In this document: piece after piece, positions 47,922 through 63,829 of the stretch
Layout of the letters: every line of letters starts with the position of its first letter
How positions within the stretch are numbered: position 1 is the first letter of the stretch
Origin: Pseudobdellovibrionaceae bacterium
GTDB lineage: Bacteria > Bdellovibrionota > Bdellovibrionia > Bdellovibrionales > UBA1609
Direction: 5' to 3'
NCBI GenBank assembly: GCA_018663505.1
Contig: JABJQG010000003.1
Coordinates: 124,001 to 188,000, forward strand
Length of the DNA: 64,000 bases
The notes under the pieces: model-generated
Seen by the model: only the letters and a program-made list of their open reading frames with translations
Databases searched by the model: none
Told to the model about the DNA's origin: nothing
Program-made: the position numbers and the translations under genes

Positions 47922-49292
47922 ATGATGAAACAAATATTATTACCACTACTATTATTGTTTGCAATGGCAACAGTTAATGTTTCGTGTTCTTCGAATAAAG
48001 CTGAAGATGAAACGAAAACCGAAGCAGGAGAACAAGGGGCAACAGAAGATGGAGCCGACGATGAATTTGAAGCTGATGAAGAGTTAGTTGATGATGAAGG
48101 TGAAGAATTAGCTGACGGCGAAGGTGAAGAGGATGGCGAAGAGTTGGCAGATGAAGGGGGCGATGATTTAGAGTCTGACCTTGGAGATGATGAAGAAGGA
48201 GATGAAACTTTAGCGGATGAGGAAACACCTTCTGACGAAGAAGGCTCAGAAGGTGAAATAGCTGAAAATGATGAAGCTCTTTCTGATGAGACTACTGCTG
48301 AGGAGCCACAAGATGAAGTGGCAGAATCTTCGGAAGCTATTGAGCCTATGGATGAGTCCATGGCTGAAAACTCAGGTACAGAGTCATCTTTCGATGAAAA
48401 TTCAGAGTCGTCGGAGGAGCCTTCTGAAAAGCCAACATGGATACCAGTGAAAAAGATTGCTGATGCTCCATTTAGTAAGCGTGGAATTTTAGTGAATTCT
48501 GTTTATTTAGCTAGACCAGGTGATGATATTCAGACAATAAGCTCAAAGTTATTTGGAGCAGATAAGACAGAAGATATATTAAAGGTAAATCCAGGATTAA
48601 GCCGAGGTGTGAAAACTGGTGATAAAATATATTATAACTCTCAAAACAGACCATCTGATGATACGATTTTAAAAACATATTATGAAGATGTAGGGTTGTC
48701 GTCAGAAGTATATGTTTCAAAAGCTGGTGATAACATTAGAAAAGTTTCTATGAGTTTACTTGGAGATGAAAATTCGTGGAAAGAAGTATGGGCTACAAAT
48801 CTAAATGTTGAGTCTAAAGGTGAAATTGAAGAAGGAACACAATTAAGATATTGGGCTTCCACAGATGCTATGCCTAATATGGCTATGAATAACGAGCCAG
48901 AAATGCCACCAACTCCAGAACCATTAGCACCACCACAACAGGCCATGAACGAAATGCCCCCTCCCCCAGCTCCACCTGCAGATTTACCACCACCGCCACC
49001 TGCGCCGCCACAGCAGGCGATGAATGATTTGCCGCCTCCACCCCCACCAGCGCCCCCAGAGGCCGTGTCTGCAGGCTCTTTAGAACCACCACCGCCCCCC
49101 CCAGCTCCACCTAAGAGAAAAAGAAGAGCTAAGAAAAAGAAAAAAGCTGTAGCTATGAGCGATGATAAAGATAATTTAATGTATATTGCCCTTGGTGGTT
49201 TGTTTCTTCTCGCTGGTATAGTAATTTATGCTAGAAAGAGGAAGTCTAAGTCTTCTACAATGGATTTTAATACTCATACTCAAATAGAATAG
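47922..49292 (+). CDS. Acidic LysM protein with proline-rich region and C-terminal membrane anchor
   Basis: 456 residues. N-terminal signal (ILLPLLLLFAMATVNVSC) of a lipoprotein-like kind, then a very acidic stretch (about 25-165, mostly Asp/Glu/Gly/Ala). Two LysM-like units: VYLARPGDDIQTISSKLFG with LKVNPGLSRGVKTGDKI, and VYVSKAGDNIRKVSMSLLG. Next a Pro-rich run (about 325-395) with many PPPPAPP, a block of basic residues (KRKRRAKKKKK) and a membrane helix (YIALGGLFLLAGIVIYA) ending basic. So it could span the periplasm, hold peptidoglycan by LysM and anchor in the inner membrane. The layout recalls FimV/TonB-like proteins. Unknown function. Confidence 0.75.
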   Translation: MMKQILLPLLLLFAMATVNVSCSSNKAEDETKTEAGEQGATEDGADDEFEADEELVDDEGEELADGEGEEDGEELADEGGDDLESDLGDDEEGDETLADEETPSDEEGSEGEIAENDEALSDETTAEEPQDEVAESSEAIEPMDESMAENSGTESSFDENSESSEEPSEKPTWIPVKKIADAPFSKRGILVNSVYLARPGDDIQTISSKLFGADKTEDILKVNPGLSRGVKTGDKIYYNSQNRPSDDTILKTYYEDVGLSSEVYVSKAGDNIRKVSMSLLGDENSWKEVWATNLNVESKGEIEEGTQLRYWASTDAMPNMAMNNEPEMPPTPEPLAPPQQAMNEMPPPPAPPADLPPPPPAPPQQAMNDLPPPPPPAPPEAVSAGSLEPPPPPPAPPKRKRRAKKKKKAVAMSDDKDNLMYIALGGLFLLAGIVIYARKRKSKSSTMDFNTHTQIE

Positions 49293-49369: not shown

Positions 49370-49756
49370 TTAAGAATTAGAAACCTTGTTTAAGATAATA
49401 TCAAGAACATCTTTTTTTGATTCTTTTTTAGATTCAACAAAGTACATCAAATCATCAACTATTTGTACATCACGATTGTTATCTGGTTGGAACTCTATGC
49501 CGCAACCTAACTCGTTTTTCCAGACAACTTTGGCATGTATTTCCCGCTCTCGGCCAGATACTTCAAACCTTACAGTGAGTTTTTCTTCCAAGCTCATAAG
49601 TATAGTTTGGTCAGTTTCTAAAAATGCCCCTGTAATAGAGATATTCTTTAGAGAACCCAAATCATTTTGACGGGCATAGTTTCTACGATAATTAATATCC
49701 ATTTTGAGTGGTAGCCTTGGTGCTGGTGGGTGGTTATTAAAGTTATTTTCTATCAT
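49370..49756 (-). CDS. PilZ-domain protein
   Basis: 128 residues. The c-di-GMP binding pattern is present: RRNYARQNDLGSLKNISITG, where R-x-x-x-R and the N-I-S-x-x-G motif are the usual contacts, followed by AKVVWKNELGCGIEF. A short Lys/Asp-rich tail follows. A single-domain receptor; in Bdellovibrio c-di-GMP governs the predatory programme and motility. Its target is unknown, but pilus genes lie near. Confidence 0.85.
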   Translation of the reverse strand: MIENNFNNHPPAPRLPLKMDINYRRNYARQNDLGSLKNISITGAFLETDQTILMSLEEKLTVRFEVSGREREIHAKVVWKNELGCGIEFQPDNNRDVQIVDDLMYFVESKKESKKDVLDIILNKVSNS

Positions 49757-50150: not shown

Positions 50151-51080
50151 ATGAACCGTTCGATAATATACTTCATTGCTCTATTTAGTCTTGGCGCTGG
50201 GTGGGGACATGCAATCCTAACAGATAATAACTTAACTGTTAGTGCAGCTTTAGGAACATTAAATTATCTTATGGGTAATGATGAGGACATATCGAAAGAT
50301 ATAGTTCGTACCGCTCCTGATACTAAGATCTTAAAAATAGTTAAGACTGACAAAGCTAGACAAGTTAGAAAAAATTCAAAAATTAGAAGGATTCAGCCAG
50401 AGCAATTTAAAGGATCTGACCTCATAATAAGGGATGAAGAAACACAAAGAAGAATTTCAAAAATTGAGGCTATGGTTGATTCATCAATAAAAGAAGATGA
50501 AAAATCTTTAGTTTGGCTAAATCAAAATGAGGAAAAAGTAGTCATTTATCTTGAAAAACTTTACAGCAAGAAACAGAAGCTAAGAACACGAATGGAAAAA
50601 TTAAATAAAATAGCGGGTATATTTGCTGTAAGTAAAAAAGCCGAGAAGATTCAGCAGATGGCATATAAGAAAGATAGAGATAAGCTGAACAAAAAATTTA
50701 GCATATTTTTAGATGCATATGGTGAAAATAATGCTGAGATTATCTCTAATAAAAAAAATGTGGAACTCAATATAAATGCTGATAATCTTTTGATTCATGA
50801 CTTAAAAAGAAAAAGAATTAGTGAAGATATTTCTCAGCATCTTGTGAAGTTTATTGATCATTTTAAAGATTCTTCGAAATCTATCGACGAGATTATTTTA
50901 GTGAAAGCCAATACCGTGTCTGAAAGATCTGTTAAAGTAATTAAAACATATTTATACAAACAGTTTGGCTGGGACGTAACTGTGGTCCCTGCCGCACTAA
51001 ACTCTTATGAAAAGTTTCCCGTGTCTTTAAAACTAGTTTCAGTTAACATAGCCGATAAACCAAAAGTAAAAGTGGAGTAA
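50151..51080 (+). CDS. Secreted coiled-coil protein, unknown function
   Basis: 309 residues with signal peptide (MNRSIIYFIALFSLGAGWGHA) and an AAGGAGG ribosome site. Residues about 95-185 are rich in Lys, Glu and Leu with heptad-like spacing (ISKIEAMVDSSIKEDEKSL, KLYSKKQKLRTRMEKLNKI), probably coiled coil. The last third is alpha/beta-like (IDEIILVKANTVSERSVKV). No family recognised. A partner membrane protein is encoded 4 bases downstream. Confidence 0.65.
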   Translation: MNRSIIYFIALFSLGAGWGHAILTDNNLTVSAALGTLNYLMGNDEDISKDIVRTAPDTKILKIVKTDKARQVRKNSKIRRIQPEQFKGSDLIIRDEETQRRISKIEAMVDSSIKEDEKSLVWLNQNEEKVVIYLEKLYSKKQKLRTRMEKLNKIAGIFAVSKKAEKIQQMAYKKDRDKLNKKFSIFLDAYGENNAEIISNKKNVELNINADNLLIHDLKRKRISEDISQHLVKFIDHFKDSSKSIDEIILVKANTVSERSVKVIKTYLYKQFGWDVTVVPAALNSYEKFPVSLKLVSVNIADKPKVKVE

Positions 51081-51084
51081 TAAT

Positions 51085-51498
51085 ATGAAAAAAATATTTG
51101 TCACTAGTGTTTTATTTGTGTTAGCATTGGGCCTCTTAATTTCTGGTAATGAGTCTGAAAACAAAATATCATATTTATTAGGCGCGATTTCTTCAGGATT
51201 ATTTTTTTTATTTTTGCTTTCTGATCTTATATCAGAATTTCTTGTTGTTAAGGCAAAGGGAATGAGTCTAAAAACAAAGAGTATTAATAAGGACATAAAA
51301 CACAGCATACATAAAAGTGAAATACCATTCTACAAATCACCTTCTGTGAAAACAAGTGATGAAACAGATAATGAATTGGCAAATTATTCTTTTTTAAATA
51401 TTCAAACTAAGTTAAGCGAAGTGAAAAAGGGAGAAGAAAAACAAGGAGCCACAAATTTAGAGTTTGAACTGAATAAGTTCTTCGAAAAAAACACTTAA
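51085..51498 (+). CDS. Small membrane protein, unknown function
   Basis: 137 residues. Two membrane helices near the N-terminus (IFVTSVLFVLALGLLISG and YLLGAISSGLFFLFLLSDLI) with a short loop, then a hydrophilic, Lys-rich cytoplasmic or periplasmic tail (SIHKSEIPFYKSPSV). Coupled to the coiled-coil protein gene by a 4-base gap. No family recognised. Confidence 0.6.
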   Translation: MKKIFVTSVLFVLALGLLISGNESENKISYLLGAISSGLFFLFLLSDLISEFLVVKAKGMSLKTKSINKDIKHSIHKSEIPFYKSPSVKTSDETDNELANYSFLNIQTKLSEVKKGEEKQGATNLEFELNKFFEKNT

Positions 51499-51947: not shown

Positions 51948-53669
51948 TTAAATCGTAGACCGAATGACTTCATCAATAGTTGTGGTTCCGCTCACAATTT
52001 TCTCTATTCCATTATTACGCATAGTTTTGAAATTGGTCTTTTTTACAATTTTTTCTAAATCCTGAGACGTTTGTCCAGAATTTATTGCAGATCGAGCTTC
52101 TTTATTAGGTACAAAAATTTCGTAAATCCCCTCACGTCCTGTGTAACCTGAGTTGTAGCATTTTTCACATCCCACTTCTTTGTAGATTTTATGATTCTCT
52201 AGCTCTTGTTCCTCTAATAGTGGATGCTGTTTTTCATCCGAAGTAAGTTCTTTCTTACAATGGTCACATAAGCGGCGAACAAGCCTTTGAGAAATTATAC
52301 CAACTAAGGATGACGAGATTAAAAAAGGATCAATTCCAATATCCATTAGCCTATTAACAGCAGAGAGGGCGTCGTTTGTATGTATAGTAGAGATAACTAG
52401 GTGCCCAGTAAGAGCAGCTCGCACGGCAATTTCTGCAGTTTCACGATCTCTAATTTCTCCAACCATTATAATATCAGGATCTTGTCTTAAAATATTTTTT
52501 AAAATTGTAGAAAAACCTAAGTTAATTTTGGGGTTAACTTGGACCTGGTTTATCATCTTAATTTGGTATTCCACAGGGTCTTCAACAGTGATAATATTTT
52601 TTTCAACAGAGTTAAGGTAGTTGATCATGGAATAAACACTTGTAGTTTTGCCGCTACCAGTTGGGCCAGTAACTAATATTATTCCGTATGGATTATGTAA
52701 AAGATGTTTAACTTGGTCGGACTGTTGGGTGTTTAAGCCTAATTCAAAAAAATCTAACTTCATTTTAGATTTATCTAGAATACGCATCACAATTTTTTCG
52801 CCTTTAACAGTCGGCATTGTAGAAATTCTGAGGTCTATAGTTTTGTCGCCAAAAGTATGCATAAAGTGACCATCTTGAGGTGATCTTTTTTCTGCAATAT
52901 CCAACTGTGATAAAATTTTTATTCTAGAGATTACAGCGGCATGATGGGATATTGGTAGCTCCAGACTTTTTTCCAAAATGCCATCAATTCTTTCTCTTAT
53001 CTGTAAAACATCTTCTTGAGGTTCAATATGTATATCACTAGCTTGGTGTGAAAGTGCTTGTTCAATGATACGGTTAACTAGGGCCTCAATTTGACCAATA
53101 TGTTCTTTTTCAATACCGGCAGAAGCTTTTTTAAATAAATTGCCAATACTAGAGGTTTCATTTTCACTGGAGCTTTGGTTACTAATAGTGAGTGAACTAT
53201 TTTGTAAAATGGATGTGATTTGGGATGAAGAGGCCACATATATTTTGTATTCCATTAAAATAAGCTTACGTATTTTACTCATATTAAGAACGTTAAGAGG
53301 GTCAGCAACAGCAATTTTTAGGACATCATTTTCTATATCAAAAGGTAAGATTGTATATTGTTGAGCAATCTTGATAGGTAATTGCTTTATTGCTTTTGGA
53401 TCTGGTACAACCCCTTTTAAGTCAATAAATTCTAGTTCAAACTGTTTAGCTAGAGCTTGCGAAAGCTCGTTCTCAGTTAGGATCTGTTCTTTGGTTAAAT
53501 AGCTACCAAGACGCACTCCTTGTTCTTTAGATTGATCTAATGCATCTTCTAAGGCATCCTGAGTAATGAGGCCAAGTTCTACACAAATAGTACCAATAGG
53601 AATTCTTCTTTTTAGAAGTTTCTTTTTAGAACCATCTTCAGTAGTAATTATTTTTTTTGCAGCACTCAC
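51948..53669 (-). CDS. Type IV pilus/type II secretion assembly ATPase (MshE/PilB/GspE family)
   Basis: 573 residues. N-terminal MshEN domain with GTICVELGLITQDALEDAL and GVRLGSYLTKEQ, the type that binds c-di-GMP in MshE and PilB proteins. Motor domain with Walker A LVTGPTGSGKTTSVYSM, Walker B IIMVGEIRDRETAEIA, the His box GHLVISTIHTNDA and the zinc-type CxxC pairs (CDHCKKE and CEKCYNSG). It powers pilus or pseudopilus extension. It reads in the same direction as the PilM-secretin operon and faces away from three pseudopilin genes. Confidence 0.92.
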   Translation of the reverse strand: MSAAKKIITTEDGSKKKLLKRRIPIGTICVELGLITQDALEDALDQSKEQGVRLGSYLTKEQILTENELSQALAKQFELEFIDLKGVVPDPKAIKQLPIKIAQQYTILPFDIENDVLKIAVADPLNVLNMSKIRKLILMEYKIYVASSSQITSILQNSSLTISNQSSSENETSSIGNLFKKASAGIEKEHIGQIEALVNRIIEQALSHQASDIHIEPQEDVLQIRERIDGILEKSLELPISHHAAVISRIKILSQLDIAEKRSPQDGHFMHTFGDKTIDLRISTMPTVKGEKIVMRILDKSKMKLDFFELGLNTQQSDQVKHLLHNPYGIILVTGPTGSGKTTSVYSMINYLNSVEKNIITVEDPVEYQIKMINQVQVNPKINLGFSTILKNILRQDPDIIMVGEIRDRETAEIAVRAALTGHLVISTIHTNDALSAVNRLMDIGIDPFLISSSLVGIISQRLVRRLCDHCKKELTSDEKQHPLLEEQELENHKIYKEVGCEKCYNSGYTGREGIYEIFVPNKEARSAINSGQTSQDLEKIVKKTNFKTMRNNGIEKIVSGTTTIDEVIRSTI

Positions 53670-53807
53670 TTTTACCCCTCAGCTACATATCGGTATTAAT
53701 TTACAATTTTATAAACTGGGCTAGACTTTGTATTATGCTTGAATGAACAAGACCTTCGACACGTTTACATAAGAACATGCAGGAATTAAAATGTGGGGAG
53801 AGGTATT

Positions 53808-54281
53808 ATGATAATAAAATCAAATCATTTAGGTTTTACCTTAATAGAAATATTAATGGTAATTTTACTATTAGGTATTCTTGGTGCGGCTGCTACAAGT
53901 CAGTTTATTAATTTTAGTGATGATGCCCATGCAACGATGACGAGTGAAAAATTAGCAGCATTAAAAATTGCAATTGTGGGTGATGCAAGGAGTATTTCTG
54001 CAGGGAAATACACCAATTTGGGTTATGAGGCTCATTGTAAAGGAGTACCAGTAAGTTTGACTGACCTTATAACTCAGCCTGGTGCAGGAACGTGTTCTGT
54101 AGACTATGATCCTTTTACAAAAAGAGGATGGCGTGGGCCTTATGTATCAAATACAGATACAAATTATAATAATGATAGTTGGGGAACAGCATTAGTATAC
54201 AGTTCTGGTGGAAGAACGATTACAAGTTGTGGACCCAATGCAACTTGTACGGATGGCGATGACATACAAATTTCTTTTTAA
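53808..54281 (+). CDS. GspG/MshA-like pseudopilin
   Basis: 157 residues from the ATG at 53808, preceded by GGGAGAGG. Prepilin signal: KSNHLG followed by FTLIEILMVILLLGILGAAA, with the canonical Gly at -1 and Glu at +5. The C-terminal part has the GspG-type pattern GWRGPYV ... DSWGTALVY and ends with two Cys (TSCGPNATCTDGDD). It is the major pilin candidate of the locus. A GTG five codons earlier is possible but less likely. The next pilin gene overlaps its end by 23 bases. Confidence 0.88.
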   Translation: MIIKSNHLGFTLIEILMVILLLGILGAAATSQFINFSDDAHATMTSEKLAALKIAIVGDARSISAGKYTNLGYEAHCKGVPVSLTDLITQPGAGTCSVDYDPFTKRGWRGPYVSNTDTNYNNDSWGTALVYSSGGRTITSCGPNATCTDGDDIQISF

Positions 54282-55083
54282 TACTTTTAAATCACAAAAA
54301 GCATTTACTTTAGTAGAAATTATTATGGTTTTGGTTCTGGTGAGTATTATCAGTGTAATGTCTATAAGAGAATTTTCAGGAACACTAGAGGAAGCTCAAT
54401 TTGAAGATACTTTGAGTGAAATGAAGCAAATTCGTGATGCAATGGTTGGAAAGTTAGATTTAGTAAGTGGTGGTTCTAGATCAAATTTTGGATTTTTGGG
54501 AGACATTGGGCGTATACCAACGAACTTGGAAGGTATATCTGCACTTGTTACAAAGCCAGGCGCACTTGCAAATTGGTCATTGGATTCTACGACCCGTTTA
54601 GGCTCAGGTTGGAATGGGCCCTATTTAACTGGCGGGGACAGTGGGGTAGATTACACTACAGATGCTTGGGGCACAGCTTATGTTTACGATGCAACCGCCT
54701 CTCCACCAACCATAATCAGTCGTGGTGCAGATACGGCGGCAGGTGGTACTGGGTATGACCAAGATATTACGATTACCTTACCTGACGAAAAAAGAGTGGG
54801 AGATCTGCATGGATTTATATCTAATGCATCCATACCATTTGATAATGATGCCGAAGTAGATTTAAATTATGTGTCAGGAGGCGCGGTTACAACATCATTA
54901 GTGACTCTAACAGTTGGTGATAATGGGCACTTTGAGTTTACCAGTGTACCTTATGGTAAAGTTTCTGTTATTATTTACGAAAATAGTAAAGCTGCACCAG
55001 TAGCAACGGTTGGACCAATCTTAGTGACTATGGATAAGCCAAATGTCTTAGTTCCTTCCGAGCAAACAGATATTAATCCTTAG
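54259..55083 (+). CDS. Pseudopilin with C-terminal regulatory-like beta domain
   Basis: 274 residues from the ATG at 54259. Leader KSQKA before FTLVEIIMVLVLVSII, with Ala instead of Gly at -1 and Glu at +5. GspG-like pattern GSGWNGPYLTGG and DAWGTAYVYD near residues 110-135. After residue 175 there is a beta-sandwich unit (DLHGFISNASIPFDND, then GDNGHFEFTSVPYGK). It is a clear paralogue of the first 270 residues of the giant pseudopilin that lies opposite. It overlaps the first pilin and the next gene (one base). Confidence 0.85.
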   Translation: MTYKFLFNTFKSQKAFTLVEIIMVLVLVSIISVMSIREFSGTLEEAQFEDTLSEMKQIRDAMVGKLDLVSGGSRSNFGFLGDIGRIPTNLEGISALVTKPGALANWSLDSTTRLGSGWNGPYLTGGDSGVDYTTDAWGTAYVYDATASPPTIISRGADTAAGGTGYDQDITITLPDEKRVGDLHGFISNASIPFDNDAEVDLNYVSGGAVTTSLVTLTVGDNGHFEFTSVPYGKVSVIIYENSKAAPVATVGPILVTMDKPNVLVPSEQTDINP

Positions 55084-55562
55084 TGGAGGCAGGTATTCAA
55101 AACCAAAAAGGAATATTAATCATTGGAATAATATTGATGATTACCACAATTGGTTTTTTAGGCAGTATGGTGCTTGTGGATATGTTACCAGGGATGCAAA
55201 CAAGTGCTATTAACAAAACTTATGATATAGGAGATCAACTGAGAGTTGCTCTGGACAAATATCGTTTACATCATGGTGGTGTTGCTGGGACGTTCCCCAC
55301 TGATATTGCTGATTTAATTGCCGACGACGGAAGTGGAGCTTGTGCAATGGACAATGTTCCTGCCAGTGGAACCTACTTAACCTTGCAGGGATGGTGCGGT
55401 CCATATTTAGATTTAGTAACTACTAATAATTCTACTAAGTATGAGCGTGATGGATGGGGAAATGATTATTCTTATGATAATGCCACAGGCATTTTTTATA
55501 GTTTTGGACCAGATCAAACTGATGACACTGGCGGAAATGATGATATTAGTTTCAATCCATAA
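55083..55562 (+). CDS. Pseudopilin-like protein lacking Glu-5
   Basis: 159 residues from a GTG that shares one base with the previous stop. The N-terminus NQKG followed by ILIIGIILMITTIGFLG looks like a prepilin with cleavage after Gly, but the Glu at +5 is missing, as in GspK-type minor pilins that sit at the tip. The rest is GspG-like (LQGWCGPYLDL, RDGWGNDYSYD, ending GGNDDISF). It probably is a minor component of the filament. Confidence 0.7.
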   Translation: MEAGIQNQKGILIIGIILMITTIGFLGSMVLVDMLPGMQTSAINKTYDIGDQLRVALDKYRLHHGGVAGTFPTDIADLIADDGSGACAMDNVPASGTYLTLQGWCGPYLDLVTTNNSTKYERDGWGNDYSYDNATGIFYSFGPDQTDDTGGNDDISFNP

Positions 55563-55646
55563 CTTGAAAAAAGTTGAGTCAGAGAGAGAATAGATTATGA
55601 ATACCACTAGCACTGTAATTTGGCTTTTTTACTGAAGCTTCGAACT

Positions 55647-58190
55647 TTAATCGTAGCCAAACATAACTGTCTCATCTCTATCCCCGGCACCTGTATCTGT
55701 TTTTGGTTGGTACCAAGCTTGAAAGCGCACATTGGTAGAAATAAATCGATGGCCAGCATTAGTTGAGCCCACTCGCACCTTGTATGGGGCGTTAGGATCT
55801 GCTCCCGAACGAGCGAGAGTTAATTCTGTGGTTCCTCCGCCCGGGGCAATCATGTCTATGGTTCCGGGAGCTATAGAAGCCATGGCCACCCAATCAGAAT
55901 TTACATTGATTGCAAACCGGTATTTTAAAAATCCGGTGGGAACGAGAGGGGCTGCGCAACTCCCATCTGCATCAGCATAAGAATTTCCAATAATGGGATA
56001 ATCTGCAGTGATGCGAAACGAATTATCCCTGTACAAGCCTGAAGTTCCTGTTTGGTTTATATTTAAAACCGACCCTAATGTCATGGTTCCAGTATTTGTT
56101 GAACTGTTAGAATGAACTCCGCTATAAGGATTACTGGTTATGGTAGTTGATACCTTGGCATCTCTAGAAGGGATGCCAAGTAAACTTGTGCTACTTGGCA
56201 TTAGAGGATGAGGATCCACAACACGTGATGACTGTGTGGAGTAAATAAATCCTATGATTAAACCTGTTGAGGTTAACTCATAGCCTCCATTTGAGCCCAG
56301 TGAAAAAGTGTGATTATCACCTGCGGCTAGGGTAACAGAGGACTGTGAAACGCCCGCCTTAAAAACTTCTACATCTGTGGCTTCAAAAGCATGAACATTG
56401 ACTTTATGTGGCGGGTTTCTATTTCCATTGAAAATAAAATCTTTTCCGGCCCAGCTTGAGGTGCTCCAAACCATATTACCTTTTTTATTATCATTCCCAG
56501 AACCTAAGCGGCCAGCTACAAAAAATTCTTTATCTGAAGATAAATGATCATTAAGTACACTTGTAAAACGATAGGTGTCCCCCGCATTGACAAGAGTGGT
56601 TAAAGTTGTGCCTGAGGGGTATGTTGCATTTGTTAATGTGATCACGGCGCCAGCCTCTATGGCTACAATCGCGGAATCTATGGCGCCCCCTAAGTTAAAG
56701 GCTGAGTGAACAGTGGGGTCAAAGAAAGGATCATTCGGCGCTGTATCCCCAGTCACAATATTAGAGAAAGCTCCCCAAGAACCATTAAAGGCTTTTACCC
56801 TAAAGTTGTATTCAGTTTCAGCAGTCAACCCAGAGATAGTTGATGTGGTGTCTGCTGAGACCCCATCCACAAAGGTGAGCCAAATACCTGAAGCAGATTC
56901 TTTGTACTCCACTTGGTAGTCTGTAATGACCGGAATAACGGGGTCTGTGGACCAACCAATGTCAATCTCTGTAGTTGCGATCCCAGTGATGATAAGGTCT
57001 TTTGCAATGGGGACGGCAGGGTTCTCGTCATCATTAATGGTATAGGTGAGTACAGAAGTTCCAAGTATAGTTCCAACAGGATGAGGATTAGAAATAGTAG
57101 CTGTAAGAGTTTCATCGGTTTCAGTGGCGCCATCGTCTAAAATCACAATAGGTAAATTGGCAGATGTATTTCCAGATAAGATGGTTACTGTACCAGTTGT
57201 GGAAGTGTAGTCCGCTCCTCCTGTGGCCGATCCATCAGCTAAAGCATAGTCCACAGTCATATCCGAACCACAATATCCAGAGGCTTCTACAATAAGGTTA
57301 GCAGGAGAAACATTTTCAGCATCATTTGAAGTGGAAGACTGAAAACCAATGGTGAGACCCGAGCAACCCCAGTTACTTGGTAAAAGATTTGTTCGGTTTG
57401 CTGGAATTAAGTATTCAGAAGATCCCACACTAAAAACAACTGGACCATAAGTGGTTGTGGGTAAGGCTTGAGATGGAAAATATACTGTAAATGAGCGAAC
57501 TCCCATAGGAATGTTAGTGAAAGAAAATGATCCATTATCCCCCGCCACAACAGTATCTGTACTGGTTGTCAAAACGCCTGATCCATTGGGGTAGTTAAAT
57601 ACCACTTCAGCATCACCCGAAAAAACAGAACCGTTATCTAAGATCACACCGTACACATTGGCTTTATACGTATTATCAGGCAGCTGTATTACAATATCCT
57701 GATTCAGAGCGGTGCCACCGGCCACGCCATCAGCTCCTCTACTAGTAAGTGTTGGGGGGGTGGCCGTTGGCGCATATACATAGGCATTCCCCCATGCATC
57801 TGTGGTCCAATCTTGTGCTAAAGATCCAGAGCTTAAATATGGCCCATTCCAGCCCACCCCAATTCTTTCTGTTGCATCAACAGCCCAGCCAGTAACGGGA
57901 ACCCCTGGATTAACTGTTAAAGCAGCCAGCCCCTGGACTGCTGAGGGAATTCCACCTACGTCACCCAGGTATCCAAAGCTAATTCGTGATCCCCCTTGCT
58001 TTAGATTAGGGTCTCCAACTAAAGCATTTCGAATTTCTAACATTTCATTACGGGTGGACTCGAAAGAATTTTCAGAAAAGCTGTCTCCAATTTCAACAAC
58101 CGCAACGGAAGTGAGTACTGCAATTAATAAAATTGCCATGATTACTTCTATTAGGGTAAATCCACTATTTTTATTTATAAGCTTAGTCAT
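55647..58190 (-). CDS. Giant 847-residue pseudopilin with Calx-beta and fibronectin type III domains
   Basis: Prepilin start MTKLINKNSG, cleavage after Gly-10, then FTLIEVIMAILLIAVL with Glu at +5. Residues 11-175 are a GspG-like pilin (GVGWNGPYLSSG, DAWGNAYVYA). About 178-270 is a regulatory-like beta unit paralogous to the plus-strand pilin at 54259. About 279-388 is a Calx-beta domain (ATGGADYTSTTGTVTI, DDGATETDETLTATISN, TINDDE). About 393-483 is a fibronectin type III domain (DYQVEYKESASG, ISGLTAETEYNFRVKAFN). The last 360 residues are a beta-rich region I do not recognise. AGAGG precedes the ATG. The tip of the filament could carry this as an adhesin. Confidence 0.85.
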   Translation of the reverse strand: MTKLINKNSGFTLIEVIMAILLIAVLTSVAVVEIGDSFSENSFESTRNEMLEIRNALVGDPNLKQGGSRISFGYLGDVGGIPSAVQGLAALTVNPGVPVTGWAVDATERIGVGWNGPYLSSGSLAQDWTTDAWGNAYVYAPTATPPTLTSRGADGVAGGTALNQDIVIQLPDNTYKANVYGVILDNGSVFSGDAEVVFNYPNGSGVLTTSTDTVVAGDNGSFSFTNIPMGVRSFTVYFPSQALPTTTYGPVVFSVGSSEYLIPANRTNLLPSNWGCSGLTIGFQSSTSNDAENVSPANLIVEASGYCGSDMTVDYALADGSATGGADYTSTTGTVTILSGNTSANLPIVILDDGATETDETLTATISNPHPVGTILGTSVLTYTINDDENPAVPIAKDLIITGIATTEIDIGWSTDPVIPVITDYQVEYKESASGIWLTFVDGVSADTTSTISGLTAETEYNFRVKAFNGSWGAFSNIVTGDTAPNDPFFDPTVHSAFNLGGAIDSAIVAIEAGAVITLTNATYPSGTTLTTLVNAGDTYRFTSVLNDHLSSDKEFFVAGRLGSGNDNKKGNMVWSTSSWAGKDFIFNGNRNPPHKVNVHAFEATDVEVFKAGVSQSSVTLAAGDNHTFSLGSNGGYELTSTGLIIGFIYSTQSSRVVDPHPLMPSSTSLLGIPSRDAKVSTTITSNPYSGVHSNSSTNTGTMTLGSVLNINQTGTSGLYRDNSFRITADYPIIGNSYADADGSCAAPLVPTGFLKYRFAINVNSDWVAMASIAPGTIDMIAPGGGTTELTLARSGADPNAPYKVRVGSTNAGHRFISTNVRFQAWYQPKTDTGAGDRDETVMFGYD

Positions 58191-58295
58191 AAGACCTCTA
58201 ATGAAATTTTAAGTCTTGTGATATCTTATGTATACTCTTCGAAAGTCCTGTTCCATATATATATTTGTTTAACTAATAGTATGTAGGCATCAGAA

Positions 58296-59564
58296 TTATA
58301 TTTTAATAATTTTAGGTGTGATTAATATCAGTAGTTCTTTGTCTCTATCAGATGAAGTTTTAGATTTAAATAACCATCCAATAAAAGGAATTTTAGAAAG
58401 CCATGGTACTCCACTTTCTGACTTTGAATGAGAATTTTTGATAAGGCCAGCCATGGTTGCTGTCTGAGAGTTATTAACAATAATGGTAGTTTGTGCAGAG
58501 TTGTCAATAATTCCGGGTATTCCATCTACAGCAGTGCTTTCAACCGCCTCGCTGTTAACAACATTAATCACAAGTTTTACTTTGTTATCTCCGACTATAG
58601 TTGGAGTCACTGATAGTGTGAGGCCAGCTGTAATTTGTGCAACTCCAGAAGTCACTGCAGAACTATCAGTGGAGTCAGAAGCCGTGGATAATGTTTTTAC
58701 ATTATAGGTAATTCCACTGGTTATATTTGCGGGTTGATTATTAATAGTCATAATTTTTGGTCGTGAAATAACTTCTGCATCTCCATTAGTTTCAGCGGCA
58801 AGAATTCTAGCAAAGAGTCTGCGTCCATCCACTTGTCCTATGGCAGCTTTTAATGCAAAATTTGGAGTTTTCGGTGATGGGTTAAGGATTGCACCAGATA
58901 CATTTGTGGCATTAACTAAGGTAGGGTCATCTAAGTCTCCATAAGATAAACCAAGCTCTTTTGACATATTTTTATTTATTTCCACAATCTGTGCTTCAAT
59001 TAAGATTTGTTGTGGCATAATATCAAACATTTTAATGAAAGATTTTACTTTTTGAATACTTAATTCAGAACCTAAAACAGCAATAGAGTTTGTGGCACTA
59101 TGAATTATCAAGTTTTCTTTTTCTTTAAGCAATTTTCTGATTTCAGGTTCTATATCTTTTGCAATTAGGTATTTAAGTTTAATAAGACGGGAGTCATCTA
59201 TCATTTTAGAGTTTATTGAACTGCCTTGAGCAATGTTGCCAGAAGAATCTGTAGACTTGTTTGTTATATAGAGAACATGCTTACTAATTGTGTAGGAAAA
59301 ATTATGTGTGTTTGACATACGATCTAATGCATCTCGTGCGGATATATTTTTAAATGAGAAAGAAACATTTGATTTAACATCTTCAGAAACCACTATTTTC
59401 ATATCTACTTTTTTAGCTAAGAGCTCCACGGCGTTTCTTAGTGATGTGTTATGAAAGTTAATAGTAAATTTTTTGTTTAAAAATTCCTCAGGATAAGTAT
59501 GTGCTCTACCAGGATCTGAAGACAGAAATAAAATACTCATAATTAATAGAATAAATATTTTCAT
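58296..59564 (-). CDS. Secretin (MshL/PilQ/GspD family)
   Basis: 422 residues with signal peptide (MKIFILLIMSILFLSS). STN-type N-domain (FTINFHNTSLRNAVELLAKK and VSFSFKNISARDALDRM), one N1-type domain, then the secretin core: QILIEAQIVEINK, SRPKIMTINNQPANI, GLTLSVTPTIVGDNK and the end VPWLSKIPFIGWLFK. Shorter than most MshL or GspD. It forms the outer-membrane gate. The ATG overlaps the stop of the PilP-like gene. Confidence 0.92.
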   Translation of the reverse strand: MKIFILLIMSILFLSSDPGRAHTYPEEFLNKKFTINFHNTSLRNAVELLAKKVDMKIVVSEDVKSNVSFSFKNISARDALDRMSNTHNFSYTISKHVLYITNKSTDSSGNIAQGSSINSKMIDDSRLIKLKYLIAKDIEPEIRKLLKEKENLIIHSATNSIAVLGSELSIQKVKSFIKMFDIMPQQILIEAQIVEINKNMSKELGLSYGDLDDPTLVNATNVSGAILNPSPKTPNFALKAAIGQVDGRRLFARILAAETNGDAEVISRPKIMTINNQPANITSGITYNVKTLSTASDSTDSSAVTSGVAQITAGLTLSVTPTIVGDNKVKLVINVVNSEAVESTAVDGIPGIIDNSAQTTIIVNNSQTATMAGLIKNSHSKSESGVPWLSKIPFIGWLFKSKTSSDRDKELLILITPKIIKI

Positions 59565-60016
59565 TTCGTATCCTTCTTGTTCTGCTTTTCAGATGCAATA
59601 TCCCGTTGTGTTTCTGTCACGGTTTCTTCAACAACACTCGTCTCAGCCATTTTAAATACAGATGGAAGTTGTAGTTCTCGGGTAGAGCTGCCGTTACTTA
59701 AAATCACATAATTTGTTCCTATATCTTTTACTTGAAAACCTCCATCAAGGTATTGATTAACAGAGAATTCTCTACCATCAATTATTGCTATGGGGTTATT
59801 CGCTTCATACACTAAGCCTTGTAGTTTAAAATCATATTTAGTTTTTACTTCTGCACTATAACCAGGAGACTTTAAAAAAGGGTCATGAGCCCATTTTTCT
59901 ACAATATTTTGTTCAAGTAAGTGAGCGTTGGAATCAAAGAAAACCTGTTCTTCGGCAGCAACATTGTTGAAGATTAAAAATATAAATGATAATGTAACAA
60001 GGGTAAAATTCATCAT
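59561..60016 (-). CDS. PilP/MshK-like periplasmic protein
   Basis: 151 residues with signal peptide ending NNVAA. The segment WAHDPFLKSP, then LQGLVYEANNPIAIIDG, VKDIGTNYVILS and a strand closing RELQLP follow the PilP/GspC homology-region pattern, which links the inner-membrane complex to the secretin. The C-terminus is Glu/Lys-rich. Coupled by ATGA overlaps to both neighbours. Confidence 0.75.
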   Translation of the reverse strand: MMNFTLVTLSFIFLIFNNVAAEEQVFFDSNAHLLEQNIVEKWAHDPFLKSPGYSAEVKTKYDFKLQGLVYEANNPIAIIDGREFSVNQYLDGGFQVKDIGTNYVILSNGSSTRELQLPSVFKMAETSVVEETVTETQRDIASEKQNKKDTK

Positions 60017-60570
60017 TGTTCCCTCAGAAAAGTGTAACTATTTACTTTTACAATGGATGTGCATTTTAAAAGATCATCATCGAGCTTCGTCAACTTAATT
60101 GAATTGACTTCAACTAAGTATTTTGAATTCTCTAACTCCTCTAAAAACTCTCCTAGCCCTATAAATGAGGATTGGATTTCTAGCTTTATTTTGTTTTTAG
60201 TGTAACCGTCAAACTTTGTGGATTTTTCAACTTGAATTTTTTGAATTTTAAATTTTTCAGGGTTTTTTTCAAAACTAAGTTCAGCAATAAGATTAGAAAA
60301 ATACCGACTAGAACTAAGGTGTTTTTCTAATTGAGATTTTAAAGATGATTTTAATGAAATATTTTTCTTTGATTTTTGAATTTGGAGAAGATTTTTTTGT
60401 TGCATACTTACTTGGTTGATTAAATTAGTTAATTTTGCTTTCATTTCTTTTGTTTCAATACTTTTTTTTGAGTACCAATATTTATTAAAAGCAAAGCTAA
60501 CAAGCAAGAAGCTTACTAATATTAAAGCACGTTCTCTATTAGAAAATTTAATACTTTTTAATTTTATCAT
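60013..60570 (-). CDS. PilO/MshJ-like membrane protein
   Basis: 185 residues: a single N-terminal membrane helix (RALILVSFLLVSFAFNKYWY), a coiled-coil stretch with many Lys and Glu (about 40-85), and a ferredoxin-like periplasmic end (SSFIGLGEFLEELENSKYLVEV). This is the PilO/GspM layout; the sequence itself is diverged, so position in the operon is the strongest support. ATGA overlaps on both sides. Confidence 0.75.
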   Translation of the reverse strand: MIKLKSIKFSNRERALILVSFLLVSFAFNKYWYSKKSIETKEMKAKLTNLINQVSMQQKNLLQIQKSKKNISLKSSLKSQLEKHLSSSRYFSNLIAELSFEKNPEKFKIQKIQVEKSTKFDGYTKNKIKLEIQSSFIGLGEFLEELENSKYLVEVNSIKLTKLDDDLLKCTSIVKVNSYTFLREQ

Positions 60571-61163
60571 TTTCTCCCCTTGGTGATATTTTTAGGGACA
60601 GAAGCTACTTTACTATTTTGAGTTTTAAACTGAAATTTAAAAAGTTCAGGTGTATATTGATCCATAATCTCTGAGAACGAAATACTCACCTTATTATAAT
60701 AGTAAGAGCGCTCAAGTGATCTGAAGAAATTTGCCATTTGATATTGTGAGGAGGTTTCACCTTCGATAAGTAGCTCTAAATTGCCATTTGTATTTGTTGC
60801 ATCAAATTTTGAAAGCCAAGTATCACTGGGTATTAGATGACTAATTTCTTTAAATGCTTTGGACCATTTATATTGGCTATCGGTAATGCCCGAAACAAGT
60901 TTTCTTTGTGCTGCACTTCTCCTACCTTTTTCGTTATCAATTTCAATCTCGGAAATATTTTTACTTAATTTTCTGTTTACTTGTTGAACTAGAAGAAGCT
61001 GAGCACTTATGTTTTTTTTGTGAAAATGAAGGCTGACAGTAGAAATAGCTCCATAACATAGAATAACTAACATAAAAGCTAGGATCAATAGATCTGGCCC
61101 CTGTTGTTTAGATTTCAAATAGCTTTCAGGCATAAGGTTTATGCGTTTTTTTTGAAAACTCAT
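60567..61163 (-). CDS. PilN-like membrane protein
   Basis: 198 residues. The cytoplasmic tail RINLMPESYLKSKQ carries the conserved N-L-x-P that binds PilM; one membrane helix (LLILAFMLVILCYGAIS), a coiled coil and a periplasmic domain (DTWLSKFDATNTNGNLELLI) follow. It forms the inner-membrane platform with PilO. Its start overlaps the pilM stop (ATGA). Confidence 0.82.
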   Translation of the reverse strand: MSFQKKRINLMPESYLKSKQQGPDLLILAFMLVILCYGAISTVSLHFHKKNISAQLLLVQQVNRKLSKNISEIEIDNEKGRRSAAQRKLVSGITDSQYKWSKAFKEISHLIPSDTWLSKFDATNTNGNLELLIEGETSSQYQMANFFRSLERSYYYNKVSISFSEIMDQYTPELFKFQFKTQNSKVASVPKNITKGRK

Positions 61164-62227
61164 GCCACACCTCTTAAAGCCAGGCCTACGGCTGTGGCCA
61201 TCAGTGGTGCTATATGGATAATGGTCTCATTTTTTTCTTCACTTAACATATCAGAACTTTTTTGAAAAAGTTCTATGTTACGAAATGGATTTACTACTTC
61301 AACTTTTAGTTGATAGTGGTTTTCTATGATGTCTCTAATATCCGCCTTTTGGCTCCCGCCACCTGTTAAGAATATTGTATCAATTTTTTTTTTGGTTTTT
61401 TCAAGATAGTAATCAACACTTTCCTGTAGTGAATCAAAAAAATGTTCAAAGGTTTGCTCAACTATTTCTCTTAGTGATTCTTCAAGACCTTCTTGAGTTG
61501 TTAAACTATAGTCATGAATTATCTTACTTGCTTCTACATATGATATTTCTAAATGATCCATGATTGTTTGTATAATGATTCCAAATGAAAAAGGAGTGGT
61601 GTGAGAATAAAGTACCTGTGAGCCTTTTAGTAATGCCACTGATGACTGACTTTCTCCTATGTCGATAAGAACATAGTAGTGTTCTTCAGAAGGTGTATAA
61701 CCATTATATTGCAACATGCTGGCTAGTGCTAGAATATCTATATCAACAACTTGTGGTTTCAGACAGGCAGTTTCAACTGTGGCGATTTTACTTAAAAGGA
61801 TATCTTTCATAGCATAAAATACTTTTACATGGATTTCCTCATCAGATCCTAAGTTTTCAAATATAATATAATCGAAGAATATATTTTCTAGCGGTATGTT
61901 TAGTGTTTGCTCTAACTCGTTTGCAATAGCTACGGTAAGTTCTTTTTTTGGTAACATTGGGAAAACAAATTCCGTGGAGTCCATTTCACTATTGCCTAAA
62001 GAAAAACAGACTTTTTTATTCTTAAAGCCGTTAACTTCAACAGCAGCTTCCAAAGAGTATTCCATATTAGGAAACTGAGGGTAATTTTCATTTCCTTGAG
62101 TGAGATCTTGATAGAAAAAATTTTCTAAAATAATGCCTTTGTCTGTTTTTTTAAGTTCTACGGCTTTTAAGCCTCTATGACCTATGTCAATCCCAATTGC
62201 TGGATCTTTTTTATTCAGAAAGTTCAT
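61160..62227 (-). CDS. pilM: Actin-like pilus assembly protein PilM
   Basis: 355 residues from the ATG at 62227, which follows AAAGGATCTCG; an upstream in-frame start lacks a site. It has the PilM actin-like fold: AIGIDIGHRGLKAVEL, VLIDIGESQSSVALLKG, FFDSLQESVDYY and IFLTGGGSQKADI. It recruits PilN and stabilises the inner-membrane assembly complex. The MSHA equivalent is MshI. It overlaps the preceding TPR gene by 17 bases. Confidence 0.9.
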   Translation of the reverse strand: MNFLNKKDPAIGIDIGHRGLKAVELKKTDKGIILENFFYQDLTQGNENYPQFPNMEYSLEAAVEVNGFKNKKVCFSLGNSEMDSTEFVFPMLPKKELTVAIANELEQTLNIPLENIFFDYIIFENLGSDEEIHVKVFYAMKDILLSKIATVETACLKPQVVDIDILALASMLQYNGYTPSEEHYYVLIDIGESQSSVALLKGSQVLYSHTTPFSFGIIIQTIMDHLEISYVEASKIIHDYSLTTQEGLEESLREIVEQTFEHFFDSLQESVDYYLEKTKKKIDTIFLTGGGSQKADIRDIIENHYQLKVEVVNPFRNIELFQKSSDMLSEEKNETIIHIAPLMATAVGLALRGVA

Positions 62228-62969
62228 ATCGAGATCCTTTTGAATTTTCAAATTGTGCAAGGTTTTGAATTGAGTAAAGTCGTTTTTTTATTTTTTCCTT
62301 TAGAGTTTGTCTGGCCATAGGGTGACTTAGGTAGTTCAAATAAAAATTGTTTGAAACAGACCAAAGACCTCTTTGCTCGAATAAAATAGCTAGGTTGAGG
62401 ATCACTCCAGGGTTATTATTATTTAACTCATATGATGTTTTAAAATGAGCAATGGCTAAATCATATTTTTTTTGAGATTGAAAAATTATGGCTAAGTTAT
62501 TGTGAGCTATAGAGCTTTCACTTCCTTTAGATTTAATATAACTATTCAAAATTTCTATGGCTTGCATATTTTTATTTTGTTTTTTTAAACTCATTGCTAA
62601 ATTAACGGTCACTCGCTCGTTTTCTTTTTCGGATTTAAAATATTTAAGTAAAAGCTTTTCAGCCAACTGGCCACTTCCTGAGTTGAGATCTCGAATGGCT
62701 ATATTAATATCCTGATTACGTCTATTTAGATATTGTTGTTGTGGAGTTTGGTGAACTACGGCATTACTCTCATAGATTTCTTGGTGATTTTTGCCATATA
62801 TAAAATAACTGACAATAGCAATGCAGACTATAGCGAAGCTACTGATAAGGCTATATTTTACCCACTTATTTTGTTTTATCGTGGGATTGTTAATAACTTT
62901 AAAAGAGCTAAGGTTTAAATCCTTAAAATCATTTTGAAGTTGGTTTAGTTTCTTTAGGACATTGCTCAT
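62211..62969 (-). CDS. TPR-containing membrane protein (MshN-like position)
   Basis: 252 residues from the ATG at 62969, which shares ATGA with the ATPase stop. One membrane helix near residue 45 (YSLISSFAIVCIAIVSYFI), then a periplasmic part with about three TPR units (AHNNLAIIFQSQKKYDLAIAH, GVILNLAILFEQRGL). The place between the ExeA-like ATPase and PilM is that of mshN in MSHA loci. It overlaps the pilM start by 17 bases. Confidence 0.8.
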   Translation of the reverse strand: MSNVLKKLNQLQNDFKDLNLSSFKVINNPTIKQNKWVKYSLISSFAIVCIAIVSYFIYGKNHQEIYESNAVVHQTPQQQYLNRRNQDINIAIRDLNSGSGQLAEKLLLKYFKSEKENERVTVNLAMSLKKQNKNMQAIEILNSYIKSKGSESSIAHNNLAIIFQSQKKYDLAIAHFKTSYELNNNNPGVILNLAILFEQRGLWSVSNNFYLNYLSHPMARQTLKEKIKKRLYSIQNLAQFENSKGSRYELSE

Positions 62970-63829
62970 GTGAAAACCCACCTGACTCTCTGGTATATAG
63001 TATCAACGAGACTAGTACTGCTAGGAAGGTAATTATTATGCTCAAGAGCATGTTGAATCTGTTTTTTGAAAAATAAACGGTTTTTGTTTTCCGCCCCATA
63101 GTTGAGTACTAGGCTACAAATCATATTTACTAATCGAGGATTACCTTTGGATAGAGTGTAAATATAGTCTGTGGCCTCTTTTTCAAATCTTAAGTAATTA
63201 GATGCTCCAGCTGTTTCCGTAGATTCTTTAATATAAAAATAAACCTCAGAAGAGTTGAATGCCACAAGTTGTACTCGTGTAGATATTCTTTGTTCGATTT
63301 GACGACACTCATGTGAGTTTAACTTTTTTGCAAGCTCAGGTTGACCAATTAAAATGATATGAATTAATTTTTGTTTATTCATTTCAATATTGCTTAACAT
63401 GCGAATAACTTCTAAAGCATCTACGCTAAGATGTTGAGCTTCATCTACAACTAATATTGTTTTTTTATTTTCTTGAGAAGAGCAGATTAAATTTTCAGTG
63501 ATTTGGTCAAATAATTCTTTTAGATTATTAGAAGAAGCACTCTCCCCAAGCTCACCTAAAATCGCCTGAAGAAGCTCTACATCATTCAGCTTTGGGTAGA
63601 AAATTAGTGCAGAATAAAATGATTCATTGCCAAGTTCTAATAGTACACGTGATAAGAGAGTTTTTCCTAGGCCAACTTCTCCAATAAGTACACCAAAACC
63701 AGATCCGGCATCTATCATTTGCACAAGTTTGTAAAGAGCGGACTGATGCGAAGTAGATTGAAAAAAGAAATCCACATCAGGTGTTTCTGAAAATGGATTT
63801 TGTGCTAAATTGTAAAAAGCATTAAACAT
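62966..63829 (-). CDS. ExeA/GspA/MshM-type AAA ATPase
   Basis: 287 residues. It opens YNLAQNPFSETPDVDFFFQS, the ExeA start; Walker A LIGEVGLGKTLLSRVL, Walker B TILVVDEAQHLS and the arginine finger region (QRISTRVQLV) are present. ExeA-type ATPases help secretin assembly through peptidoglycan. There is no peptidoglycan-binding domain at the C-terminus, as in MshM. It is the first gene of the seven-gene coupled operon. Confidence 0.88.
   Translation of the reverse strand: MFNAFYNLAQNPFSETPDVDFFFQSTSHQSALYKLVQMIDAGSGFGVLIGEVGLGKTLLSRVLLELGNESFYSALIFYPKLNDVELLQAILGELGESASSNNLKELFDQITENLICSSQENKKTILVVDEAQHLSVDALEVIRMLSNIEMNKQKLIHIILIGQPELAKKLNSHECRQIEQRISTRVQLVAFNSSEVYFYIKESTETAGASNYLRFEKEATDYIYTLSKGNPRLVNMICSLVLNYGAENKNRLFFKKQIQHALEHNNYLPSSTSLVDTIYQRVRWVFT

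What the first reader, a model, noticed from the sequence alone, without database searches (positions are those of the whole stretch)
51948..63829. MSHA-like pilus locus, coupled throughout, in a Bdellovibrio-like genome
Seven minus-strand genes (ExeA/MshM, TPR/MshN, PilM, PilN, PilO-like, PilP/MshK-like, secretin) are joined by ATGA overlaps, plus one 17-base overlap, in nearly the order of MSHA operons, with an MshE-type ATPase and four pseudopilins next to them. The pilins look like GspG of type II secretion rather than PilA. No platform protein (MshG/GspF) or prepilin peptidase is in the window. This may be a filament system between MSHA pili and type II secretion, with a possible role in attachment or prey contact.
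Basis: partly seen in the sequence, partly recalled or inferred. Interest (0 to 1): 0.75.

Follow-up and report, generated by a model that had tools for sequence, protein, structure and literature searches.

The report
MSHA-like pilus of Bdellovibrionota bacteria
Besides an ordinary type IV pilus and a secretion machine, this relative of predatory bacteria carries a third, complete pilus machine that is a cousin of the cholera bacterium's surface-attachment pilus but uses a different exit pore and carries very large, variable subunits.

Summary
Seven minus-strand genes (mshM, mshN, pilM, pilN, pilO, pilP, secretin) overlap by 4 bases at five junctions and 17 at one; an MshE-type ATPase and four prepilin genes lie beside them. 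The 'missing' platform protein is a window-edge artefact: it starts 79 bases past the window, with an MshA-like pilin behind it. The genome has separate T2SS and T4aP loci and prepilin peptidases, so this is a third, complete type IV filament system. It recurs in 17 of 368 Bdellovibrionota genomes (an 18th is divergent) with the same core and four pilin classes, and is absent from the listed Bdellovibrionaceae. The motor (ATPase plus platform) branches with gammaproteobacterial MSH (90/89, not decisive); AU tests reject T4aP (0.013) and T2SS (0.022). The secretin is not with MshL (0.001) but sister to PilQ, without AMIN domains. MshM does not side with gamma MshM. It is a sister lineage or mosaic of MSH, not an intermediate towards T2SS. 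One pilin class lacks Glu5 (14 of 14); another carries variable extensions, 847 residues in all here. Likely function: an adhesin-tipped attachment pilus (inferred). A role in predation is unsupported.

The parts
51948..53669 (-). mshE: extension ATPase with MshEN (c-di-GMP receptor-like) N-terminal domain
   Evidence: Pfam T2SSE 3e-139, MshEN 1.6e-16; NF053729 c-di-GMP motif 47.6 bits over a cut-off of 38; below cut-off for PilB and GspE equivalogs
53793..54281 (+). minor prepilin B: Glu5 present; homologues in 15 of 18 genomes
   Evidence: N_methyl 2e-6
54208..55083 (+). minor prepilin C (291 aa): GspG-like domain followed by an Ig-like stretch
   Evidence: T2SSG 1.7e-10; homologues in 14 of 18 genomes
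55083..55562 (+). minor prepilin D: lacks Glu5, as do all 14 members found
   Evidence: no Pfam match
55647..58190 (-). second prepilin C of 847 aa: GspG-like pilin, then Calx-beta, fn3 and a 357-residue C-terminal module; putative adhesive tip subunit
   Evidence: Pfam; same ends in G018 (L287, module 64% identical); the module sits on non-pilin proteins in other genomes
58296..59564 (-). secretin, 422 aa, without AMIN domains, PilQ-related
   Evidence: Secretin 5e-47, STN, Secretin_N; trees and AU tests
59561..60016 (-). pilP/mshK-like: HR-domain protein
   Evidence: No Pfam match at 1e-3, T2SSC at 0.0098; model's C-terminal beta-domain pLDDT about 90, best PDB matches GspC HR domain (8.8e-4) and PilP (2.5e-2)
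60013..60570 (-). pilO/mshJ-like
   Evidence: PilO 4.2e-8
60567..61163 (-). pilN-like
   Evidence: PilN 2.5e-7
61160..62227 (-). pilM/mshI-like (ATG start; the longer TTG ORF reaches 62260)
   Evidence: PilM_2 2.4e-35; 17-base overlap
62211..62969 (-). mshN-like TPR protein
   Evidence: TPR domains; homologues in 13 of 18 genomes
62966..63829 (-). mshM: ExeA/GspA-type AAA+ ATPase. Upstream of it and outside the window lie mshG (C41:188079-189308, L009:2080-3309) and an mshA-like prepilin (C41:189479-189991, L009:3480-3992), same strand
   Evidence: AAA_22 1e-24; TIGR03015 197.6 bits, below cut-off; outside genes:
50151..51080 (+). neighbour X309, no known family; homologues beside the same system in G008 and G018 (3 of 18 genomes with the window); membership unproven
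51085..51498 (+). neighbour Y137, small protein; 4 of 18 genomes; membership unproven

Best explanation
It is a complete third type IV filament machine, related to MSH (MSHA) pili, that builds an adhesive pilus. Shown by sequence: a 13-gene set conserved within a phylum. Inferred mechanism: a prepilin peptidase encoded elsewhere trims the five prepilins; MshE turns the platform MshG to polymerise an MshA-type pilin; PilM-PilN-PilO-PilP align the machine with a PilQ-related secretin; MshM (AAA+) and MshN (TPR) help insert or assemble that secretin; the Glu5-less minor pilin and the GspG-like pilin with large C-terminal modules prime assembly and sit at the tip as adhesin; PilT from the separate T4aP locus may power retraction, as it does for MSHA in V. 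cholerae (PMC7096442, abstract and passages); c-di-GMP may tune extension through the MshEN domain. By descent the motor is nearest MSH while the secretin is nearest PilQ, so the lineage is a sister or mosaic of MSH, not a plain MSHA pilus.
For: Complete gene set incl. platform and MshA-like pilin. Separate T2SS (C27), T4aP (C38, C25) and further ATPases and secretins in the same genome. 17 of 368 phylum genomes hold a secretin at 322 bits or more, with ORFs of about 430-490 aa (one is cut by a contig end, 253 aa), then G509 at 239, then PilQ-type at 221 or less. Content over 18 genomes, missing cells often at contig ends: mshM 15, mshN 13, pilM 15, pilN 14, pilO 14, pilP 16, secretin 18, mshE 12, mshG 14, mshA 16, pilins B/D/C 15/14/14. 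Motor. Secretin. HR fold of PilP. Glu5 absent in 14 of 14 pilin D; present in 23 of 23 A, 15 of 15 B, 20 of 22 C with Asp in the other 2. Fusion pilins in G000 and G018.
Against: MSH kinship of the motor is not starred (90/89) and the ATPase alone is unresolved (63/81). MshM does not side with gamma MshM (AU 0.044; 0.245 with the X system added). AU does not reject the secretin with MshL+X (0.077) or with T2SS (0.091). Motif I of MshEN lacks its Arg and Gln in the window's protein, and 4 of 11 homologues have lost most of both motifs. Nothing here shows expression, piliation or adhesion. MshE was not found in the regions fetched for G029.
Confidence: 0.7

Rival explanations
1. True MSHA pilus whose secretin was replaced by a PilQ-type one (family member with one swapped part).
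For: Motor groups with MSH; mshA, mshE, mshG and mshM homologues in one locus without prepilin peptidase, the rule in PMC6668835; weak profile matches of pilM, pilP and mshN to genes of gamma MSH loci.
Against: MshM also lies apart; MSH sisterhood of the motor is not decisive; mshM-mshN stand before pilM, not after the secretin.
Confidence: 0.3
2. Secretion machine: a T2SS-like pseudopilus exporting proteins.
For: GspG-like pilins (T2SSG 1.7e-10 and 1.2e-8); pilP model closest to the GspC HR domain; secretin with T2SS not rejected (0.091).
Against: AU rejects the motor with T2SS (0.022); a separate T2SS is present; pilM, pilN, pilO, pilP are separate genes as in pili; an 847-aa pilin is unlikely to be a bulk pseudopilin (inference).
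Confidence: 0.12
3. A second, divergent T4aP, for example for DNA uptake.
For: Secretin sister to PilQ (96/96); PilMNOP present.
Against: AU rejects the motor with T4aP (0.013; platform alone 0.042); no PilT in the locus; no AMIN domains; carries MshM and MshN.
Confidence: 0.12

Closest known systems
MSH (MSHA) pilus of Gammaproteobacteria
   Same: MshE with MshEN domain, MshG, MshM, MshN, PilMNOP-like proteins, secretin and MshA-type pilin in one locus; no prepilin peptidase in the locus; other filament systems in the genome
   Different: Secretin is PilQ-related and about 430-490 aa; mshM-mshN precede pilM; pilins divergent, with GspG-like and very long members; MshEN motif I degenerate while motif II is often kept (the reverse of most gamma MshE); host phylum not among those reported in PMC6668835
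Type IVa pilus (PilB/PilC/PilQ)
   Same: PilMNOP and a PilQ-sister secretin
   Different: Motor rejected from T4aP; no AMIN, no PilT in the locus; MshM and MshN present
Type II secretion system
   Same: GspG-like pilin domains; PilP's HR domain resembles that of GspC
   Different: Motor rejected from T2SS; no GspC with PDZ and no GspL/M seen in the locus; separate T2SS in the genome

Membership tests
MSH pilus | mshA, mshE, mshG, mshL, mshM mandatory (model in PMC6668835, passages) | tested here: inconclusive
   A, E, G, M homologues present; the secretin is not of the MshL branch
MSH pilus | Secretin is MshL (TIGR02519, clade) | tested here: not met
   130.5 bits against a cut-off of 250.2; in 3 relatives it scores below the genome's best other secretin; AU 0.001
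MSH pilus | Motor (ATPase, platform) in the MSH clade | tested here: inconclusive
   90/89 with MSH and two planctomycete systems; T4aP and T2SS rejected, MSH not
MSH pilus | MshM in the MSH clade | tested here: inconclusive
   AU 0.044 without X, 0.245 with X
MSH pilus | Single locus, no prepilin peptidase in it, other filament systems in the genome | tested here: met
MSH pilus | MshE binds c-di-GMP | not testable with these tools
   Domain model above cut-off but motif I incomplete
Type IVa pilus | PilB/PilC clade | tested here: not met
   AU 0.013
Type IVa pilus | PilQ family score and AMIN domains | tested here: not met
   TIGR02515 213.8 against 284.35; no AMIN in Pfam
Type II secretion system | GspE/GspF clade | tested here: not met
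   AU 0.022
Type II secretion system | GspD, GspE and GspG equivalog cut-offs | tested here: not met
   194.3 against 351.35; 555 against 630.25; 52.8 against 88.85

The most novel reading that the evidence does not exclude
A separate subfamily of type IV filaments, sister to MSH and seen here only in Bdellovibrionota: an MSH-type motor joined to an AMIN-less PilQ-type secretin, with a Glu5-less primer pilin and exchangeable giant pilin-adhesins at the tip, moved horizontally within the phylum.
Probability: 0.45. Interest if true: 0.65.

Novelty: new variant of a known kind. Interest (0 to 1): 0.5.

Why it matters
The 2019 survey of type IV filaments reports MSH only from Gamma- and Epsilonproteobacteria and Chrysiogenetes (PMC6668835, section 12 and passages). 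A coherent MSH-related machine in 17 of 368 sampled Bdellovibrionota genomes widens that range, offers rows to test whether the MSH motor and its secretin share one history, and gives a phylum best known for predation with T4aP a further filament whose tip may carry interchangeable adhesin-like domains.

Tried and rejected
Missing platform protein: rejected, it lies just past the window edge. Second MSHA locus: none found. Single-gene ATPase trees do not resolve the question. A first secretin tree lost 12 of 13 wanted gamma and Bdellovibrionota PilQ rows, and one magnetococcal row, through a faulty pattern; repaired. The structure model of the 847-aa pilin failed (mean pLDDT 33) and was not searched. 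Sigma-70 and terminator scan: no more than in shuffles. X309/Y137 as core parts: rejected, only 3 and 4 of 18 genomes. Plasmid search: no match.

Rows dropped before trees: one search left out L179; one search left out L134, L175, L176 (long) and L142, L138, L148, L150, L157 (redundant) and added 8 rows of other groups; one search left out L134, L142, L148, L150, L157, L160 and added 7; one search used 44 of the 52 rows (without L090, L097, L084, L142, L133, L147, L172, L173); one search left out L059, L076, L136, L140, L142, L144b, L148, L153, L173, L185 and added 8 BMSH rows and L094; one search left out E. coli GspA, L134, and the second MshM of L060 and of L248 from the rows. Some long ORFs were cut to their homologous part for trees.
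Full report
Check. Junction sequences give 4-base overlaps at five of six junctions and a 17-base overlap at mshN/pilM.

Beyond the window. The window is C41:124001-188000. The next genes on the same strand are a platform protein (C41:188079-189308) and an MshA-like prepilin (C41:189479-189991), upstream of which lies a divergent rho gene (rho is my reading of the ORF). So mshA, mshG, the seven overlapping genes and the 847-aa pilin are ten collinear minus-strand genes; a plus-strand trio of prepilins and the minus-strand mshE follow.

Rest of the genome. There are three two-domain platform proteins: this one, GspF at C27 and PilC at C38. C27 holds a T2SS run with secretin, ATPase, platform and pseudopilins; C38 a PilB-PilT-PilC-PilS-PilR run (gene names are my reading, backed by matches); C25 a PilQ above the family cut-off and a prepilin peptidase. 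Secretins: five. Only one strong MshM homologue.

Distribution. Among 39 close genomes the secretin has clear orthologues in the window genome and four others (G008, G018, G019, G029). A scan of named species genomes found 39 loci, of which three are orthologous (44-48% identity): records titled Bdellovibrionales, Pseudobdellovibrionaceae and 'Proteobacteria bacterium BJ13'; the rest are other secretins at 22-34%. That scan needs short peptide patterns, so it can miss relatives. In the phylum-wide search 17 of 368 genomes, window included, score 322 bits or more; G509 (239 bits) is a divergent 18th; all else is 221 or less, mostly with longer, PilQ-like frames. None of the 42 listed genomes of family f8 is among the 18; f8 is taken as Bdellovibrionaceae because G438 matches the titled record of L065. 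In the secretin tree G029 (same order) sits with two genomes of another family of the phylum, f12 (99/95), and G497 (same family as the window) with G476 of f10 (100/100), which suggests transfer within the phylum; no species tree was computed.

Conserved content. Profiles built from the first five genomes and scored over 18 genomes recover the same set: mshM, mshN, pilM, pilN, pilO, pilP, secretin, mshE, mshG and four prepilin classes, usually in the order A-B-D-C. In the window the order is B-C-D, with A upstream of mshG and a second, giant C. In four genomes of one family (L248, L251, L252, L253) mshN has moved or was not seen and pilM and pilN are not adjacent. Absent cells often coincide with contig ends.

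Trees. References: gamma MSH loci chosen because MshL exceeds its curated cut-off (90 of 229 genomes) and the order L-M-N-E-G-pilins is seen in most; T4aP and T2SS of gamma and Bdellovibrionota genomes. BMSH is the name used here for the window's type. It is one clade, 100/100, in the ATPase, platform and secretin trees. Platform: BMSH with gamma MSH and two planctomycete systems 98/94; AU 0.084 for BMSH+MSH alone, 0.042 with T4aP, 0.058 with T2SS. ATPase: BMSH+MSH 63/81; T4aP 0.125, T2SS 0.137, X 0.47. Both joined: 90/89 for BMSH+MSH+planctomycetes; T4aP 0.013, T2SS 0.022, MSH alone 0.49. Secretin: BMSH and PilQ together 96/96; with MshL 0.001, with MshL+X 0.077, with T2SS 0.091; on the earlier rows 0.0005, 0.14, 0.16, and 0.19 with the Bdellovibrionota PilQ alone. 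MshM: BMSH one clade 100/99, with gamma MshM 0.044, with X added 0.245. X is an unnamed MshL-bearing system of one gamma genome and a magnetococcal one.

Pilins. Class D lacks Glu5 in 14 of 14; classes A and B have Glu in 23 of 23 and 15 of 15; class C has Glu in 20 and Asp in 2 of 22. A Glu5-less pilin at the tip is the rule for GspK (recalled, not tested). Class C is GspG-like plus an Ig-like stretch (Pfam CarboxypepD_reg only at 0.008 in one member), with extensions of varying length. The window's 847-aa copy adds Calx-beta, fn3 and a 357-residue module found in 9 of 39 close genomes, its own included; in G018 it is again on a pilin, in G008 and G025 on proteins that begin like lipoproteins (lipoprotein by eye).

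c-di-GMP. The window's MshE passes NCBI's domain model. Of 11 conserved positions per motif it keeps 8 in motif I (no Arg, no Gln) and 9 in motif II; L057, L059, L251 and L252 keep all 11 in motif II; L243, L245, L246 and L250 keep 5 to 7 in each motif. PMC5013675 (abstract and passages) says perfect motifs may not be needed.

Literature. Searches for MSHA with Bdellovibrio and type IV pili, type IV filament superfamily with MSHA, Bdellovibrio with pilin, secretin and predation, Bdellovibrio with T2SS, T4P, MshE (20 of 74 listed), mshM with Bdellovibrio (none), Bdellovibrionota comparative genomics and MSHA pilus with Deltaproteobacteria and mshE (none) gave listings with no title or abstract start describing this system; most subscription papers are not held. 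Passages of PMC3818213 and PMC12827227 name T4aP, type IVb and ordinary pil genes, and neither text holds 'MSHA'.

Verdict. A real, complete and conserved filament system; a new variant of a known kind; interest moderate. Adhesion is the best guess; predation-specific use is unsupported.

Noticed in passing
window 50151-51498: Two genes of no known family (X309, Y137) sit beside mshE; homologues sit beside the same system in G008 and G018 (Y137 also in G019), with a SPOR-domain protein nearby in G008 (Pfam) and, by eye, in G018.
   Followed up: partly
window 49370-49756 and 47922-49292: A PilZ-domain protein and a large acidic, proline-rich protein with a C-terminal hydrophobic segment lie just beyond; plausible but untested partners of a c-di-GMP-tuned pilus.
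   Followed up: no
L162:5320-8073: In G008 the 357-residue module of the window's giant pilin is carried by a lipoprotein-like protein about 3 kb from mshG.
   Followed up: partly
L060:101-2981 and 17657-18484: In G019 the pilus locus, with a second mshM and a second mshA, is flanked by flagellin-like and FliD-like genes (names by eye).
   Followed up: no
L144:2003-9184 and L177: A further MshL-bearing system with a longer ExeA-type ATPase occurs beside MSH in one gamma genome and in a magnetococcal one; it forms its own branch.
   Followed up: partly
L094 and L098: Two planctomycete systems have platform proteins that group with MSH (98/94) but secretins on the PilQ side, a mix similar to the window's.
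   Followed up: partly
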